A DNA stretch of 64,000 nucleotides. Source: a bacterium. Lineage in GTDB: Bacteria; Campylobacterota; Campylobacteria; Campylobacterales; Sulfurimonadaceae. The stretch spans positions 1 through 64,000 of the forward strand of contig JAHJJX010000021.1 in NCBI GenBank assembly GCA_018822665.1, given 5' to 3'. Positions 22,489 to 38,037 of this stretch are shown here, in pieces. How positions within the stretch are numbered: the first letter of the stretch is position 1; each line of letters opens with the position of its first letter. Under the pieces are notes generated by a model that worked only from the letters and a program-made list of their open reading frames with translations, did not search any database and was not told the origin of the DNA. The position numbers and the translations under genes are program-made.

Positions 22489-23506
22489 GTGAAATCTCAC
22501 ATCCGCTAAACTCAAAATCCAGCGCATCGGAAGGTTCTTTGTACAACAAAGGACTGTCCAAATCTATATATTTTATAATATCTCTGTATGCCAGAGCCAA
22601 ATGCAGAGCAACGTTGATAGAAAAGGGTCCCTCAAGCATTGAACCGAGCATGCAGGGGACATTTTGTTCTTTGGCATATTCCAAAATCTCTCTGGCTTTT
22701 GTAACTCCGCCGCACTTCATAAACTTAATATTTATCATATCGGCACTTTTTGACGCAACAACTTTTTTTGCATCTTCTAAAGTAAATACCGCTTCATCGG
22801 CCAAAATGGGAATGTTTGAATACTCTGTAATATATTTAAGTCCCGCTAAATCGCTTGCAGCGACAGGCTGTTCAATGAGTTCTATTTTGAACTCTTTAAT
22901 CGCATCAATAAACTCCAAACAATCTTCCACATGCCAAGCCTGATTTGCATCAACAAGTATCTTTGCATGTGGAAGTTCTGCCGAGATAGATTGTATCACC
23001 TCGATGGCATGTGGAATATCTTTGCCGAGTTTGACTTTTAAAATCCACATCCCGTTTGCACATGCCGACTTTGCGTCTTCCAACATCTTCGCAGGATTAT
23101 TCAAACTTATAGTGACATCTGTTTGCAGAGGAGTTAAATCTTTGGCACCGAAATACTCATAAAGAGCCTTGTTTTGGTGTTTTGCCACTAAAGAAACAAG
23201 TGCCGTATCCAGAGCCGCCTTTGCACTGTTTGCTATCTGGCATGTGGAATGCAAAAGGGTTAAAGCCTGCTCCGGCATGTGGAAGATTAAAATATCTTTG
23301 ACGCGCTCGATGGAGTTCAAGATATCTTCCAAATCCTCACCCGTTATCGCTTTTGTGGCAGGGGCTTCGCCGATTCCCGTAAAACCGTTTTTGCAAATGA
23401 TATGTACTCGCACAAACTCCACATGCCAAGCTGTTCGAAGAGCCGTAATAAAAGGAGTTTTTAAGGCTCTGCGCTGTATTTGTGTTTGAATTTCAATTAT
23501 TTTCAT
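22478..23506 (-). CDS. L-Ala-D/L-Glu (dipeptide) epimerase, enolase superfamily
   Basis: The 342-residue protein belongs to the muconate-lactonizing subgroup of the enolase superfamily. The KxK acid/base motif is LKVKLG. Metal ligands are in LVDANQAW, LIEQPV and ILADEAV, and the second catalytic Lys is in INIKFMKCGG. These match dipeptide epimerases of murein peptide breakdown. I chose ATG 23506; the frame is open 22 codons upstream without homology. It is divergent from a symporter gene at 23659, and a cell-wall amidase lies elsewhere in the window. It carries five exact and one near copy of the dispersed motif, the densest set in the window. Confidence 0.85.
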   Translation of the reverse strand: MKIIEIQTQIQRRALKTPFITALRTAWHVEFVRVHIICKNGFTGIGEAPATKAITGEDLEDILNSIERVKDILIFHMPEQALTLLHSTCQIANSAKAALDTALVSLVAKHQNKALYEYFGAKDLTPLQTDVTISLNNPAKMLEDAKSACANGMWILKVKLGKDIPHAIEVIQSISAELPHAKILVDANQAWHVEDCLEFIDAIKEFKIELIEQPVAASDLAGLKYITEYSNIPILADEAVFTLEDAKKVVASKSADMINIKFMKCGGVTKAREILEYAKEQNVPCMLGSMLEGPFSINVALHLALAYRDIIKYIDLDSPLLYKEPSDALDFEFSGCEISLKK

Positions 23507-30976: not shown

Positions 30977-31213
30977 TTACAAAGAGCCCAAAACAGGCAA
31001 TCCAAACCCGCTTATACTTTGAAACTCTATCTCAAAACCAAGATTAAAAAGAATAATATCAAGTGTTTTTACAGAGACTGAACCAAGTTCACCTCGCTCT
31101 ATCTTACCAAGGGTCACACGGCTTATGTCAGCTTGCTTTGCAAGTTGTTCTTGTGTGAGCCTTTTTTCTTTTCTATAGTTTTTAATCGTTTGCCCAATTT
31201 CGTGTAATTTCAA
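30977..31213 (-). CDS. HipB-like HTH protein, second hip locus
   Basis: The 78-residue XRE-type DNA-binding protein has helix-turn-helix TQEQLAKQADISRVTLGKIE. I chose TTG 31213 because AAGGAG lies seven bases before it. Longer frames start at 31264 or 31240 without such a site. It overlaps the end of the hipA-like gene by 32 bases and follows it, which is opposite to the usual hipB-first order. Confidence 0.85.
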   Translation of the reverse strand: MKLHEIGQTIKNYRKEKRLTQEQLAKQADISRVTLGKIERGELGSVSVKTLDIILFNLGFEIEFQSISGFGLPVLGSL

Positions 31214-32396
31214 GTGGTATCTCCTTATATGTTTTTTCATCCAAAGACAATTTCCACATGCCAATCATCTTAGAAGCAATAGCTTCAAAATCTTTATTGC
31301 TTGGGAGATAATCTTCAATCTCTTTTATACTCTGTTTCAGTGCTTCTATACAAACTACATAGAGACTATTTGATTCAGCAGGTGTAAGATAGCAAAACTC
31401 GACTCCAAACTTTAGAAGCTCTTTTTTCCCTAACCACATTTTTTTGCCAAACATACTTAAAGCTGGTCTGTCTTTATAAAAATAAACTACTGTATTTACA
31501 ATGTCATAAGCTGGTGCAAAGTAGATATTTTTCAACTCTTCATCATATAAAATTCCAAAATTTTTCAAATGTGCATCGCCATTTTTTAGTAAATAGTTCA
31601 TTACAATTGTTTTATAAAGTGCTCTCATCGACTCTATTTTATTAGTTGTTACGCTATAAACGACTTTTGCAACCTGCTCATAACTCCCGCCATATTTTTC
31701 ATCTTTATTTTTTCCAAGTAGTACTAAAATCTCTTCAAAACCTAGAAATTTATTTGTAGTTTTATCATAATTAAATCGCTCTAGAAGTAAAAATTTATTG
31801 TTTTTTGAGAGCTTGATATTTGGGATAAGCACCCCTGCTTTTTCAACCGCTTTAAGACAAAAGTACTCATTTAAAGCCAGCTCTTTATACTCTTCTCCCC
31901 AAGTTTTTATGATGTATTCTTTTGTAGTTAAGCTCTCTTTATCGCTCAAAAGTGCCAAAGATTTTGGCTGAACTCCAGAAATAGCGTTTTTAGTTAAAAA
32001 AGTAGTGATTATTTTTGAAAAAGTATCAGGCGTGTCATTGTTTAAAATCTCATCTATATCTAAGACGACAAACTCGTTCTTGCTACTCCAACTCTCATAA
32101 GTTAATCTACTTTCAATGTTTACACAAAGATGAGAAAATATCAAAAAGTCATCAATGTAGCCATACTCTTTTGAAAGGTACTTTTTAAATATCTCAAAAA
32201 GGTATCCCTCTGGCATATTCATATCAAAAATAGGGTGAAGTTTGTATTTCCAGTTGTATGTTGAAGCACGAAATGGCATAATAAGAGAGATTGGTTTATA
32301 GTTTGCTGTATAGTTAAAGCCGTAGCTATTTTTATCTTCTTCATAAAAAAGCTCGCCTACTTTTTTGCTATTTACCTTTACATCAATCTTTTTCAT
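31182..32396 (-). CDS. HipA-family kinase toxin, second hip locus
   Basis: The 404-residue HipA-like kinase has AISGVQPKSLALL, YIIKTWG, LLLERFNYD, the catalytic loop LLKNGDAHLKNFG and the metal motif FAPAYDIVNT. It shares the N-terminal LHPIFDMNMPEG with the first HipA (LHPIFEMNMPEG), so the two are distant paralogues. It is transcribed ahead of its HipB partner. The start ATG has only a weak ribosome site. A dispersed-motif copy lies at 31251-31262. Confidence 0.88.
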   Translation of the reverse strand: MKKIDVKVNSKKVGELFYEEDKNSYGFNYTANYKPISLIMPFRASTYNWKYKLHPIFDMNMPEGYLFEIFKKYLSKEYGYIDDFLIFSHLCVNIESRLTYESWSSKNEFVVLDIDEILNNDTPDTFSKIITTFLTKNAISGVQPKSLALLSDKESLTTKEYIIKTWGEEYKELALNEYFCLKAVEKAGVLIPNIKLSKNNKFLLLERFNYDKTTNKFLGFEEILVLLGKNKDEKYGGSYEQVAKVVYSVTTNKIESMRALYKTIVMNYLLKNGDAHLKNFGILYDEELKNIYFAPAYDIVNTVVYFYKDRPALSMFGKKMWLGKKELLKFGVEFCYLTPAESNSLYVVCIEALKQSIKEIEDYLPSNKDFEAIASKMIGMWKLSLDEKTYKEIPLEITRNWAND

Positions 32397-32539: not shown

Positions 32540-32794
32540 TTAAATATAAACATCCTTTCTATGAGCAATTTTTGATATTAGCATCAAATTATCTTCTTGA
32601 TAAAACACAACTCTATAATTACCAACTCTTAACCTATACGCACCATCGAATGGTGTTTTTAATTTTTTAATCTTTGTAAGGGTTGGATTTGATGCAAACT
32701 CTTCTATACCATCAAGCAAAAGTACAGCTACTGATTTATCGAGTTTTTTGAGCTGCTTGAGAGCTTTTGGATCATATTCAATTTTATAAGCCAA
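32540..32794 (-). CDS. RelE/ParE-family toxin
   Basis: This 84-residue toxin of the RelE/ParE fold has YDPKALKQLKKLDK at the N-terminus and the core GAYRLRVGNYRVVFYQED, then IAHRKDVY with the conserved HR near the end, as in ribosome-dependent RelE nucleases. It starts at TTG 32794, overlapping the antitoxin end by 11 bases. Confidence 0.92.
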   Translation of the reverse strand: MAYKIEYDPKALKQLKKLDKSVAVLLLDGIEEFASNPTLTKIKKLKTPFDGAYRLRVGNYRVVFYQEDNLMLISKIAHRKDVYI

Positions 32795-32999
32795 GTTCTG
32801 TTCTTACATCTTTGTGTGAAATCGTCTTTAATGTACCCATTTTATAATCTTGAACAGTTTTTGTTACAGAGAGTGTATCAAAATAATCTTGTAGCGCTTC
32901 TCTGATAACTTGCGTTTTCTTTTTACCTGTTTCATACGCAACTAAACCCAACTCTTCTATTAGATTTTCTTCTAAAGTTATAGTTATTTTTTTAGTCAT
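32784..32999 (-). CDS. ribbon-helix-helix antitoxin of RelE pair
   Basis: The 71-residue protein starts with KKITITLEENLIEEL, the beta strand and first helix of a ribbon-helix-helix repressor, then KKTQVIREALQDYF. The C-terminal part should wrap the toxin. I chose ATG 32999 with AAGG upstream over a start twelve codons earlier. It should repress its own operon through the repeats at 33018-33036. Confidence 0.88.
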   Translation of the reverse strand: MTKKITITLEENLIEELGLVAYETGKKKTQVIREALQDYFDTLSVTKTVQDYKMGTLKTISHKDVRTELGL

Positions 33000-33017
33000 A
33001 TTAACAACCTTTATATA

Positions 33018-33055
33018 TTTACCATATTTTACCATACTTTTATTAATTAATAAAA
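33018..33055 (-). promoter_or_regulatory. operator repeats for RelE/RHH operon
   Basis: TTTACCATA occurs twice, at 33018-33026 and 33028-33036, ten bases apart, as expected for tandem ribbon-helix-helix dimers. A perfect 18-base A+T palindrome (TTTTATTAA/TTAATAAAA) follows at 33038-33055. Both lie just upstream of the antitoxin start. Confidence 0.6.
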
Positions 33056-33236
33056 TAATAAAAACAGTGGAATAAAATGGTCATTTCTTATGGCTATGTT
33101 CATGTTAATTGTTTGAATAATTTCCACATGCCGAGAGTTTTTTTCTTTTTTAGATAACTAAAAAAGAGTGAAAGTTCAGAGTGATGTTGAAGATTTACTT
33201 ACTAAAGGATGTAGTTTTAATAAAAGAAAGATGAAA

Positions 33237-33262
33237 TTGGCATGTGGATTTCCACATGCCAA
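33237..33262 (-). terminator. head-to-head pair of dispersed motif forming a terminator
   Basis: Two copies of the dispersed motif face each other: TTGGCATGTGGA, two T, then TCCACATGCCAA. This makes a 12-base stem. It lies 27 bases past the stop of the giant lipoprotein gene, and the minus strand then runs T-rich (TTTCATCTTTCTTTT). It is the best terminator candidate for that gene. A third copy lies at 33121-33132. Apart from these, 33056-33288 shows nothing else. Confidence 0.75.
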
Positions 33263-33288: not shown

Positions 33289-36200
33289 TTATGGGTAGTA
33301 TTTCAAACACCCTTCTGCTTGAGTACCTGTTACTCCATACATAGCTAACAAATCTTCAACTTGTTGTTTTGTTTGGAACAGTACTTTTTGATTACTCATA
33401 TAAATTGCATCCTCAGCATTATACATTACTCTTGCGCTGTCATTGCCATCACTATATGTTAATGTCGCACCGTCTATGCTGTATGACATGTCAGCGACTT
33501 GCTGAGCAGTATTGTTATCATCTATATAGTCTGCAACCATACTTCCATCTGAATTAAAAGTTAGTTGTGCTCCACATTGGTATTCATAACTTCTATTATT
33601 ACTTTCATCATATGTTGTTACTAACTGAAAGTGGTACCAAGGGTTAGCACTCAACTCCGCCACGGTTGTTGGATATTTTGTTTCATACTCTGTAAATTTT
33701 ACTGTTCTTTCTGTTTCATTTAATGATGTATTGCTCCAAAGAGCCGGATAAAAATCTGGATTAGACAAGCCTTCTGTACTAATTAAATACGAATCTGTAT
33801 CCTCTCCTCTAATAATCCATGTATTTGTATTAGTTGAAAATTGAAAAACTATATTGCCTTCTTCGTCAATGCTTATTGGCATATCAGTTGCATACACTTC
33901 CATGCCATCTATACTCTTAGCTGTAACAGAAGTTGCATCAGAATTAAATATAAACATTGCTCTATTTTCAACAGGATTACCTGATTGGTCATAACCGTAT
34001 GAATAAAAAGTTTTATCAGCTAACATTGCTGTTGTGAAACTTAAAGTAGTCGTTGTACCACTCTCAACATACCCAAACTCATCTTTTAAATACTGAAGAG
34101 CTTTTGCTTCATCAGAATACCATCTTGCATCAAAAGTACCTCCGTCTTGATGATGTTCTCTCATACTGATATATTCAGTAGTCTGACCTAAGTACTCTTG
34201 TAAATTACCGGCATTAACACTATTACCTTCTATGGTAACGTTTAATTCAAAATGATTTACTGGACCGATAATCCAATCACCAACTAAAGATGTCGCATCG
34301 GAATTAAATACCGCTTTTGTTAAAATTGGATCATTGTAATCCATACCAGGAATATAAAATGTCTTCCCTGCATATAATGCTGCCCCAGTTGCTGTTCTAG
34401 TTTGAGTACTAACTGTTCCCAATGGATTAGTTGCAACTATTTTATTTATTCCATACTCTGATAATGTATAATTATCATCAGTATTAGGGGTAATAACTAC
34501 CCTTTCATATTCACTTTGTGAAAGACACTTATTTGTTGGAGACAAATCACCACTTGATGCTCCAGAACTTTTAGTGTCTACTGTACATGGGGAGTTACTG
34601 TCAAAATAATTTATCTCAGTTCCACTAGAAACATAAGAATATTTTGTTCCATCATAACTCAATGTTGCAGTACTAGCCGCATCTGTTGAACATGCAGTAT
34701 TGGATTGGATAGTTGTCCAAGTACCAGTCAAATCATATGTGTCGGCAGGACAAGATTCGCTTGTTGATGGTGTAGTTGTAACAGTTTCAGCCACTGCCAT
34801 TACATCAGCCATACCAATAGCATTTAAACTTGGGCGCTCAAAAGGTTGAAACTCGTCACTAGCTTCATTTATCCAACCACCATAAACGATAAGTGTATCG
34901 TTAGTGTCAGAAGCTTTATGAAGTGTTACAAAGTGACCACTATTATTTTTATAAGCTTCAACAGTAATATTATAGAAAATTCCCAATGTACTAGTACCTG
35001 GTAAAGTTCTTGCTTCCCATGTTCCTGCAGTTCCTGGAGTTCCGACAAGTATAGTTTGACCAGAGTATGTATCTATTGGTTTTTTCACTTCAGATAAAGT
35101 TCCATTAGAGCCTTCAACTAAAGTACCACTAAATGGTGCTGCAAAAGTCACACCACCATCTCCATCACCTGTAATCCACCAGTTATCACCTATTTCACTT
35201 CTATCATTTTTAATAATGTATTGCTCTAATGATGTTATAGTTGCCATCTGTCCAAGTTCATTGTTGGCATATTCCACTTCATCCAAATTATATGAAGTAG
35301 TAGTATATCTATAAGTATGTTGATTCATCTTAGCACCAGCACTAAACGTCACATCACTAATACCGTCAAAATTTATAGTTGTTCCACCGATATCCGTAGA
35401 ACTTAAAAGCTTAACTTCTGCATTGTGTACAGGTATATTTAAAACTGTGTCACTATTAGTTAACGTAAATGAGGAAGCACTCAGAGTATCTCTTATTATC
35501 CAATTACCATCTTTTAAGGTGTACTCAACATTATTAGAAACTCTATCAACAATTCCTGAAGTACCAAAGTAGTAAACTTCACGCTTTTCTTCCATATTTA
35601 AGTCTGTACCAAAAAGAGTTGTATATATCTTGACACCAGGCCCGTTGCCATCTACATCTTCATCAACTTCAAATTCATACCATGCATGAGGAAGTGTAAA
35701 TGCAAGGTCCGTTGTGTTTGTATCAGGTGTAGTTGCATTTTGAGCTGAAATAAGTGCAGCATGCGCTGCAGTTGCTGCTACTGCAGCTGTTTGTGCTTGT
35801 GTTGCTGCAGTAGTTTGTGCAGTTGCTAGTTCTGTTGCTATTGCTGCTGCTCTAGCCTGCGTTACTCCGGCTGTTTGTGCTTCAACATTGAGTGTGTAAG
35901 CGCTAACACCTAGTCCAGCTGCTTCACCTGCTGCTGTCACTGCCTGATTTGCAGCTGTTCTAGCCGCTGTTGCATAAGTTCCAGCATTAGGGTTTGAGAT
36001 TACAAGAGCTTCTGCTGCTGTTGCATCTGCATTTGCGGCTGTCATACTTGCTTTTGCTGTTGTAGCACTTGCTTGGATCGCTGTTAAAGAAGCTGAAGCT
36101 GCATTTTGGCTGGCAAGAATTGCATCGGCTATATTTTGCTCTGCTTTTGCAATCTCTTCTGCTTTAATCGCTTCCACTTCTAGCAGATACGCAGCCACTT

Positions 36201-38037
36201 CATTTGCTTTAGTATAAGCTAATGTAAGTTGTGCATCAAATGTAGTTTTTGCAGTTGTTGCAGCTGTTTGTGCATTTGTTGCACTTGTTTCATCCAAGGC
36301 TACTTGAGCAGCTAGCACCGCTGCTTTTGATGTATTGATATCCGCTGCCGCTGTTAATGCTGCACTATATGCAGTAGCTGCCATATTTGCTGAAGCATTT
36401 GCATCATTTGCTTTAGTTAAAGCAGCACTATATTGATTGGCAATAGTGAATATTTCTGTCATATTTGCTTGAACTTCCGCTGGTTTTGTGCTGGCTTTTT
36501 CCAACTCAGCTATTGCATTTGCATCTATTGCTTTTACAGTATTTACAATAGTTGTAATTCTTGCTGCTTTGTCTGCTGCTGCTTTTTCTGCTATTAATTT
36601 ATCAAGTTCAGCTTGCTCTAACAATGCTGCACTAACAGCTGCTTGTGCTTCTGCTTCAAGTCTCGCAAGTCTCTCTGCTTCCGCTTTTGCCGCTGCTGCT
36701 TCTTCGGCTGCTTTCGCCGCTTCTGCTGCTGCTAATGCATCAGCTTCTGCTTGGGCTTTTTCTTCTTCAAGTGCTGCTTTTGTTGCTTCATCAGCCGCTG
36801 CTATCTGAGCTTGTAGTTCTGCAATTTTTGCTTCTAAAGCTGCTTTTTCTGCTGCAGCTTCTGCTTCTGCTTCAAGTCTCGCTTTTTCTGCAAGTGCAGC
36901 TGCATTTCTATAATCTTCAAATCTTGCACCAACTAGAAATGTTTTTTTATTTGCTTTGAGAATTTTTATTTCTGTTGTCACGGGTAAAAATGCTGTTTGA
37001 GTCATATTGCCATCAGTAACTAGAACATCATTAACATCTTTTGAGAGTGTGCTTGTATTATTTGAAGTATTTACATCTTCCATCTTTACAATTCTTAGTA
37101 TCTCTTTAGCATGTAAAAGTGAAAAAGATGTATTAACTGTAGCATTTAACTCATCGGGAGTTGGTACTGTTTGCTTATTTTCAATAGCTACAACGATTTG
37201 TTGTTTTACTGCACCTATTTTAGTACCTATAACAGCTGTTTCTGTAGTACCTGAAGTTCCAACGATTAAATCAATTTGACCACTGATTGCTGTTGCACTA
37301 TTTTTTGCATCGCCACTAAAATCTCCATCTGATTCCATTTGAACCAATGCAGCAGCTAGATCTTTATCTGCTGCTGCTTGTATAGCTAACTTTTTATACA
37401 GTTCATCTACTAATTTATTTGCACTATCTGTAGAACCAGCTGTTTTCTGAGCAGCTGCAAGCACTTCAACTGTTTTTTGAAGTTTTAGTGCCGCTTTTAA
37501 AAGTGTTGGATCTGTTTTTGCGGCTTCAATAGGATTAGCTCCAAGATTGAAACCATCTAACCCAAGCATACTTTTTACTAATATTTCAGCTTGTTCTTTT
37601 GTTTTATTGCCATCCATGAGAGAACGAACCATTGTAGAAAGAGGAGAAATATTTATCCCTGCACCATCGCCAAGAGGTGCTTTAAGTTTACCTATAAAGT
37701 CCACTCCCGTATCTACATCATAACCACTATATATAATTAGTGGTGCATCCGCATATTTTGGATATGTAGCTTTTTGAGCTACTGTAAGTGTAAGCGAGAA
37801 CTTACCATTTTCATCAGTGTATGATGCTGGTTCATCTCCTACTTGACAGTAGCCATCAAGATTTAAGTCCAGACAAACTGTTGCTTGTGACAAATAGCCA
37901 TCTATGCCTACTCCAGAAAGTGTGCTATCTGATACATCTGGAACAGGATCACTACTGCTACTTCCTCCTCCGCTACACCCACCAAAAAACAAACCAAGAG
38001 CCAACAAAGCTCCGAGAAAATACTTACCTGCTTTCAA
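33289..38037 (-). CDS. 1582-residue Ala-rich coiled-coil lipoprotein
   Basis: This very large secreted lipoprotein has lipobox LFFGGC (Cys21) followed by a Gly/Ser linker. Residues about 40-90 (GVGIDGYLSQATVCLDLN, then GYCQVGDEPASYTDENGKF) form a carboxypeptidase-regulatory-like beta domain. Residues about 375-500 are a highly charged Ala/Glu/Lys coiled coil, and 500-765 an Ala/Thr-rich helical stalk. From about 790 it is beta-rich, with repeats around FNSDATS near 1240, 1360 and 1495. The start is TTG 38037 with AGGGG upstream. It looks like a surface stalk or adhesin. The response-regulator gene lies just upstream on the same strand. Confidence 0.88.
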   Translation of the reverse strand: MKAGKYFLGALLALGLFFGGCSGGGSSSSDPVPDVSDSTLSGVGIDGYLSQATVCLDLNLDGYCQVGDEPASYTDENGKFSLTLTVAQKATYPKYADAPLIIYSGYDVDTGVDFIGKLKAPLGDGAGINISPLSTMVRSLMDGNKTKEQAEILVKSMLGLDGFNLGANPIEAAKTDPTLLKAALKLQKTVEVLAAAQKTAGSTDSANKLVDELYKKLAIQAAADKDLAAALVQMESDGDFSGDAKNSATAISGQIDLIVGTSGTTETAVIGTKIGAVKQQIVVAIENKQTVPTPDELNATVNTSFSLLHAKEILRIVKMEDVNTSNNTSTLSKDVNDVLVTDGNMTQTAFLPVTTEIKILKANKKTFLVGARFEDYRNAAALAEKARLEAEAEAAAEKAALEAKIAELQAQIAAADEATKAALEEEKAQAEADALAAAEAAKAAEEAAAAKAEAERLARLEAEAQAAVSAALLEQAELDKLIAEKAAADKAARITTIVNTVKAIDANAIAELEKASTKPAEVQANMTEIFTIANQYSAALTKANDANASANMAATAYSAALTAAADINTSKAAVLAAQVALDETSATNAQTAATTAKTTFDAQLTLAYTKANEVAAYLLEVEAIKAEEIAKAEQNIADAILASQNAASASLTAIQASATTAKASMTAANADATAAEALVISNPNAGTYATAARTAANQAVTAAGEAAGLGVSAYTLNVEAQTAGVTQARAAAIATELATAQTTAATQAQTAAVAATAAHAALISAQNATTPDTNTTDLAFTLPHAWYEFEVDEDVDGNGPGVKIYTTLFGTDLNMEEKREVYYFGTSGIVDRVSNNVEYTLKDGNWIIRDTLSASSFTLTNSDTVLNIPVHNAEVKLLSSTDIGGTTINFDGISDVTFSAGAKMNQHTYRYTTTSYNLDEVEYANNELGQMATITSLEQYIIKNDRSEIGDNWWITGDGDGGVTFAAPFSGTLVEGSNGTLSEVKKPIDTYSGQTILVGTPGTAGTWEARTLPGTSTLGIFYNITVEAYKNNSGHFVTLHKASDTNDTLIVYGGWINEASDEFQPFERPSLNAIGMADVMAVAETVTTTPSTSESCPADTYDLTGTWTTIQSNTACSTDAASTATLSYDGTKYSYVSSGTEINYFDSNSPCTVDTKSSGASSGDLSPTNKCLSQSEYERVVITPNTDDNYTLSEYGINKIVATNPLGTVSTQTRTATGAALYAGKTFYIPGMDYNDPILTKAVFNSDATSLVGDWIIGPVNHFELNVTIEGNSVNAGNLQEYLGQTTEYISMREHHQDGGTFDARWYSDEAKALQYLKDEFGYVESGTTTTLSFTTAMLADKTFYSYGYDQSGNPVENRAMFIFNSDATSVTAKSIDGMEVYATDMPISIDEEGNIVFQFSTNTNTWIIRGEDTDSYLISTEGLSNPDFYPALWSNTSLNETERTVKFTEYETKYPTTVAELSANPWYHFQLVTTYDESNNRSYEYQCGAQLTFNSDGSMVADYIDDNNTAQQVADMSYSIDGATLTYSDGNDSARVMYNAEDAIYMSNQKVLFQTKQQVEDLLAMYGVTGTQAEGCLKYYP

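What the first reader, a model, noticed from the sequence alone, without database searches (positions are those of the whole stretch)
33237..33262. Head-to-head motif pair used as a transcription terminator
Two facing copies form a 12-base stem with a TT loop, 27 bases past the giant lipoprotein stop, followed by a T-rich run on that strand. In Neisseria and Haemophilus, inverted uptake-sequence pairs are used as terminators in just this way, which supports the uptake-sequence reading.
Basis: partly seen in the sequence, partly recalled or inferred. Interest (0 to 1): 0.62.

Follow-up and report, generated by a model that had tools for sequence, protein, structure and literature searches.

The report
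Paired uptake-like motifs cap gene ends
In a Sulfurimonas-like bacterium, two facing copies of a 10-base word that recurs about 860 times in the genome form an RNA hairpin just after a gene's stop codon; such pairs sit at gene ends in several related species, but mostly without the run of T's a textbook terminator needs, so they look like DNA-uptake tags reused as 3'-end hairpins.

Summary
In detail: 33237-33248 and 33251-33262 are perfect inverted arms around GGCATGTGGA, 26 bases past the stop of a 1,582-codon lipoprotein gene, and the fold is far beyond chance. The word occurs 859 times in this 2.5-Mb genome (reversed control: 2). Inverted pairs occur 25 times in one order and 21 in the other, against about 1.5 each expected. 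Of 44 classifiable pairs 35 lie within 50 nt after a stop codon, against 12 of 197 single copies; related genomes repeat this (66/79 vs 20/186). The mechanism is only partly right: as a class these hairpins carry no U-tract (2.2-2.4 T in 8, against 4.1 in E. coli by the same method), although this site has 5. Unlike Neisseria, both orders are about equally common. The uptake reading gains independent support: in a relative whose comEC is split by an insertion, exact copies fall to 141 (sister species: 1,302) amid scattered near-misses. At gene ends of decayed genomes, mutated pairs often still base-pair, so the hairpin itself seems selected. Best reading: uptake-like sequences co-opted as 3'-end hairpins that shield mRNA or help termination. 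Neither uptake nor termination was shown by experiment.

The parts
33237..33248 (+). Left arm, TTGGCATGTGGA (forward copy of GGCATGTGGA at 33239-33248)
33251..33262 (-). Right arm, TCCACATGCCAA (reverse copy of GGCATGTGGA at 33251-33260); with the left arm an 11-12 bp stem
33220..33236 (-). T-rich stretch following the stem on the - strand, TTTCATCTTTCTTTTAT (5 T in the first 8)
33289..38037 (-). Large lipoprotein ORF (1,582 codons, TTG start as listed; no Pfam match); its stop codon is 33289-33291
33123..33132 (-). Third, unpaired copy of the word (TCCACATGCC on the + strand), about 120 bases from the hairpin
32784..33035 (-). Next gene downstream on the same strand (83 aa, weak DUF6364 match below cut-off); the hairpin lies about 200 bases before its start

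Best explanation
GGCATGTGGA is most likely the DNA uptake sequence of a naturally transformable lineage of Sulfurimonas-like Campylobacterota, and where two copies face each other just past a stop codon the 3' end of the mRNA folds into a strong hairpin. Shown by computation: pair placement at gene ends, both pair orders, recurrence in several species, no U-tract as a class, and mutated but still pairing arms at gene ends of genomes where the word has decayed. Inferred: the hairpin is kept for a role at the RNA 3' end. The role I think most likely is a structure that stops 3'-to-5' exonucleases, or marks the end left after Rho-dependent termination; at the minority of sites with T-rich tails, perhaps including this one, it may be ordinary intrinsic termination. 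Also inferred: the word spreads by biased DNA uptake and recombination, and pairs were recruited at gene ends because they are ready-made stems.
For: 859 copies on both strands against 2 for the control pattern. 35/44 pairs vs 12/197 single copies within 50 nt past a stop (p 1e-23), and 66/79 vs 20/186 in other species; only 1 and 4 pairs between divergent genes. Pairs in both orders in seven other motif-rich genomes. No T-tail, with an E. coli positive control. In the comEC-split relative G148, 141 exact and 448 one-mismatch copies; its sister G105 has 1,302 exact copies. Near-misses in G148 and G143 spread over motif positions. Mutated pairs still pair at gene ends in 5 of 12 cases, in genes in 0 of 18.
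Against: No uptake assay and no RNA data. One clear comEC-split lineage only; G093 and G123 have few copies although their ComEC domain looks intact. Few decayed pairs, and shuffled sequence also gives 4 of 28 pairing. Several orthologous gene ends in G148 show no stem of 7 or more pairs. Genes were called by a simple model of my own, not a standard annotation.
Confidence: 0.6

Rival explanations
1. Classical intrinsic (Rho-independent) terminators built from inverted uptake sequences, as in Neisseria and Haemophilus: the hairpin plus a U-tract releases RNA polymerase.
For: Placement right after stop codons and between convergent genes; strong stem; this site has 5 T in 8 and is flagged by the consensus scan.
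Against: No T enrichment after the stems as a class: 0.81 T in 5 against 1.69 in controls, 2.2-2.4 in 8 against 4.1 in E. coli. No clear pair-order bias, whereas Neisseria shows 226 against 5 and about 3 T in 5 (PMC1852404).
Confidence: 0.2
2. Two uptake sites simply parked in free space past stop codons, with no role for the RNA hairpin.
For: Pairs are made of the repeated word, and gene ends tolerate insertions. Most exact pairs are gone in G148 (3 genome-wide against 92 in its sister G105).
Against: In same-strand gaps the pairs are nearer the stop than the next start (16/19, 33/37), single copies less so (10/15, 11/23). Inverted pairs far outnumber same-strand pairs, which are mostly two tandem arrays. 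Mutated pairs keep pairing at gene ends.
Confidence: 0.15
3. GGCATGTGGA is not an uptake sequence but another highly repeated word (a methylation, recombination or regulator site, or a mobile repeat) that also forms gene-end hairpins.
For: Uptake was not measured. ComEC is present in nearly all relatives, with or without the word.
Against: Most single copies lie inside genes (172 of 194 with a gene context in the own-genome loci), on both strands, with preferred reading frames, unlike intergenic repeats or regulator sites. Exact copies are few and near-misses many in the relative whose comEC is split.
Confidence: 0.15

Closest known systems
Inverted DNA uptake sequence pairs in Neisseria (GCCGTCTGAA)
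   Same: A 10-base word with about equal counts on both strands; closely spaced inverted pairs form hairpins at gene ends, commonest between convergent genes (PMC1852404).
   Different: Different word and phylum. Neisseria pairs carry T-tails (about 3 of 5) and are 226 to 5 in one order; here no T-tail as a class and 25 to 21.
Inverted uptake signal sequence pairs in Pasteurellaceae (AAGTGCGGT)
   Same: Inverted pairs at terminators and a weaker order bias (50 to 25 in H. influenzae; PMC1852404).
   Different: Different word and phylum; the Pasteurellaceae extension supplies A/T tails, here the extension gives AA after the stem.
REP/BIME-type 3'-end hairpins of enterobacteria (from general knowledge, not tested)
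   Same: Repeated hairpins past stop codons that need no U-tract and can protect mRNA 3' ends.
   Different: Here the unit is a 10-base word found mostly singly inside genes, not an intergenic palindromic repeat.

Membership tests
DNA uptake sequence (DUS/USS) | Short word hugely over-represented on both strands | tested here: met
   422 + 437 copies against 2 for the reversed pattern
DNA uptake sequence (DUS/USS) | Host carries the DNA uptake channel ComEC | tested here: met
   ComEC of 420 aa in the own genome; but nearly all relatives have it, so this does not discriminate
DNA uptake sequence (DUS/USS) | Word decays when competence is lost | tested here: inconclusive
   Met in G148 with split comEC (141 exact, 448 near-misses; sister 1,302), but one lineage; G143 may be an assembly gap
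DNA uptake sequence (DUS/USS) | DNA with the word is taken up preferentially | not testable with these tools
   needs an uptake assay
Inverted uptake-sequence pair at gene ends | Inverted pairs enriched just past stop codons | tested here: met
   35/44 vs 12/197 and 66/79 vs 20/186
Intrinsic (Rho-independent) terminator | Stable G+C-containing stem-loop past the stop | tested here: met
   -18.8 kcal/mol, z -6.95
Intrinsic (Rho-independent) terminator | U-tract directly after the stem | tested here: not met
   Not met for the class; this single site has 5 T in 8
Intrinsic (Rho-independent) terminator | Transcripts end at the site without Rho | not testable with these tools
   needs RNA 3'-end sequencing

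The most novel reading that the evidence does not exclude
A DNA uptake sequence in Campylobacterota, with a natural comEC knock-out showing its decay, whose inverted pairs were taken over as 3'-end hairpins without U-tracts that outlive the uptake function by compensating changes.
Probability: 0.5. Interest if true: 0.75.

Novelty: new variant of a known kind. Interest (0 to 1): 0.6.

Why it matters
Uptake sequences are best known from Neisseriaceae and Pasteurellaceae; in the papers searched I found none for Sulfurimonas or Campylobacterota (most subscription journals are not held). A word that is patchy inside one genus, with a variant form in one relative and a decayed form in a relative with a split comEC, would let one test whether such words are kept by uptake. 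Gene-end pairs without T-tails would show that the link between uptake words and gene ends does not depend on the T-tail explanation given for Neisseria.

Tried and rejected
A search for other dialects in short samples (3.5-20 kb) of 20 relatives with few or no copies found no clear rival word; power is low, since 20 kb of the own genome gives only 8-9 copies. Missing ComEC in G143 was first taken as a second natural knock-out, then set aside because its neighbour dnaB is missing too. Hits in Lachnospiraceae, Phycisphaerae, Chitinophagales and others were left out of the analysis as likely chance or mixed bins. Two paper searches on terminators and uptake in Campylobacterota found nothing.

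Full report
Observation. The two arms at 33237-33248 and 33251-33262 are exact inverted copies around GGCATGTGGA. As RNA they form 11 pairs with a 4-nt loop at -18.8 kcal/mol, z -6.95. The stem ends 26 bases from the stop codon of the 1,582-codon lipoprotein ORF on the - strand. A third, unpaired copy lies at 33123-33132.

The word. GGCATGTGGA and its complement are the top 10-mers of the window (28 copies); the genome of 2.5 Mb holds 422 + 437 copies against 2 for the reversed pattern. The extended consensus is roughly cTTGGCATGTGGAAaT. A scan of named genomes for the facing pair brings mostly Sulfurimonas, Sulfuricurvum and Helicobacteraceae bins, so the window most likely comes from a Sulfurimonas-like member of the Campylobacterota. 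Within the genus the word is patchy: hundreds of copies in some species, a handful in most.

Pairs and gene ends. Facing pairs with a gap of 0-20 occur 25 times, back-to-back pairs 21 times, same-strand pairs 13 times, about half of them in two tandem arrays. Random placement predicts about 1.5 per inverted order (my arithmetic). With genes called by a simple coding model of my own, 35 of 44 classifiable pairs lie within 50 nt past a stop, against 12 of 197 isolated copies (p 1e-23). In loci of other species, which were selected for holding a facing pair, the figures are 66 of 79 against 20 of 186 (p 5e-31). In same-strand gaps the pair is nearer the stop than the next start in 16/19 and 33/37 cases. 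Only 1 and 4 pairs lie between divergent genes.

No U-tract as a class. After the facing pairs the sense strand has 0.81 T in 5 bases against 1.69 in control sequence past stops; the share with 6 or more T in an 8-base window within 20 nt is 17% against 16.5%. A closely similar procedure on two E. coli K-12 stretches gives 4.1 T in 8 after the stem and 2.0 before it; motif hairpins give 2.2-2.4 after and 3.8-3.9 before. The cause is visible in the motif: its extension places AA after the stem. In Neisseria the extension supplies the tails, which Kingsford et al. offer as the likely reason for the strong order bias (PMC1852404); here neither the tail nor a clear bias is seen. Non-motif hairpins at gene ends in this genus also show little T enrichment. 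The window site itself has 5 T in 8 and may be an exception.

Uptake reading. ComEC is present in nearly all of the genus, including the window's genome (420 aa), so its presence does not separate motif-rich from motif-poor species. One relative is informative. In G148 comEC is split: residues 1-171 follow dnaB at C15:14716-15228 and residues 167-417 resume near 23355, about 8 kb on. The two junction sequences printed both show GTCTC, as a 5-bp target duplication would (read by eye). G148 has 141 exact copies and 448 one-mismatch copies, whereas seven motif-rich genomes have 0.3-0.4 near-misses per exact copy (my division). Its near-misses are spread over positions. In a DnaB tree G148 is sister to G105, which has 1,302 copies (98/90), next to the window's genome (96/85). 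This fits a word kept by uptake and lost after competence broke. It is one lineage and one gene tree. G143 looks decayed too, but its missing comEC may be an assembly gap because dnaB is also missing. G168 shows a variant, AGCATGTGGA. G093 and G123 have few copies although a ComEC domain is found.

Hairpin kept after the word decays. In stretches of G148 and G143, pairs at gene ends carrying 1-3 changes still pair, G-U allowed, in 5 of 12 cases; inside genes 0 of 18 do (Fisher p 0.006). Shuffled G148 gives 4 of 28, so the effect is moderate. Examples in G148: GGCATGTGAAAATTTTCACATGCC, 26 nt past a stop, changed on both arms; and a stem between convergent genes, TTCCTCGTGC...GGCATGAGGAA, at the gene end where the window's genome has an intact pair. 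At another orthologous gene end G148 has an unrelated palindrome, ATCCGGATGATTAGTCATCCGGAT, and at several it has no stem of 7 or more pairs. Genome-wide, exact pairs fall to 3 in G148 against 92 in G105.

Conclusion. The pair is a real gene-end hairpin made of two copies of a likely uptake sequence. Its role at the RNA 3' end is inferred. Textbook intrinsic termination is not supported for the class and remains possible at this site. Neither uptake nor termination was tested by experiment.

Noticed in passing
L186:15229 to L172:5355 (G148:C15:15229-23354): The roughly 8-kb insertion that splits comEC in G148 carries a KwaB-like gene (Kiwa defence), a uracil-DNA glycosylase family gene and a radical SAM gene, with GTCTC at both junctions as a possible target duplication.
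   Followed up: partly
G168 (L166, L193-L199): The commonest form of the word is AGCATGTGGA (16 copies against 9 of GGCATGTGGA in 150 kb), which looks like a dialect of the same word.
   Followed up: partly
G000:C20:449078-449159 and G000:C32:13359-13421: Tandem arrays of 18-base units, each holding one copy of the word in the same direction.
   Followed up: no
L265-L271 (G144, G135, G169, G168): DnaB is interrupted near residue 207 inside a single open frame of about 830 codons, as an intein would do.
   Followed up: no
L169 and L170 (G016, G046): The palindrome TTACATGTAA is frequent in 20-kb samples of two relatives of another genus.
   Followed up: no
window 31182-32396 (-): HipA-like kinase gene, possibly part of a toxin-antitoxin pair, close to the hairpin.
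   Followed up: no
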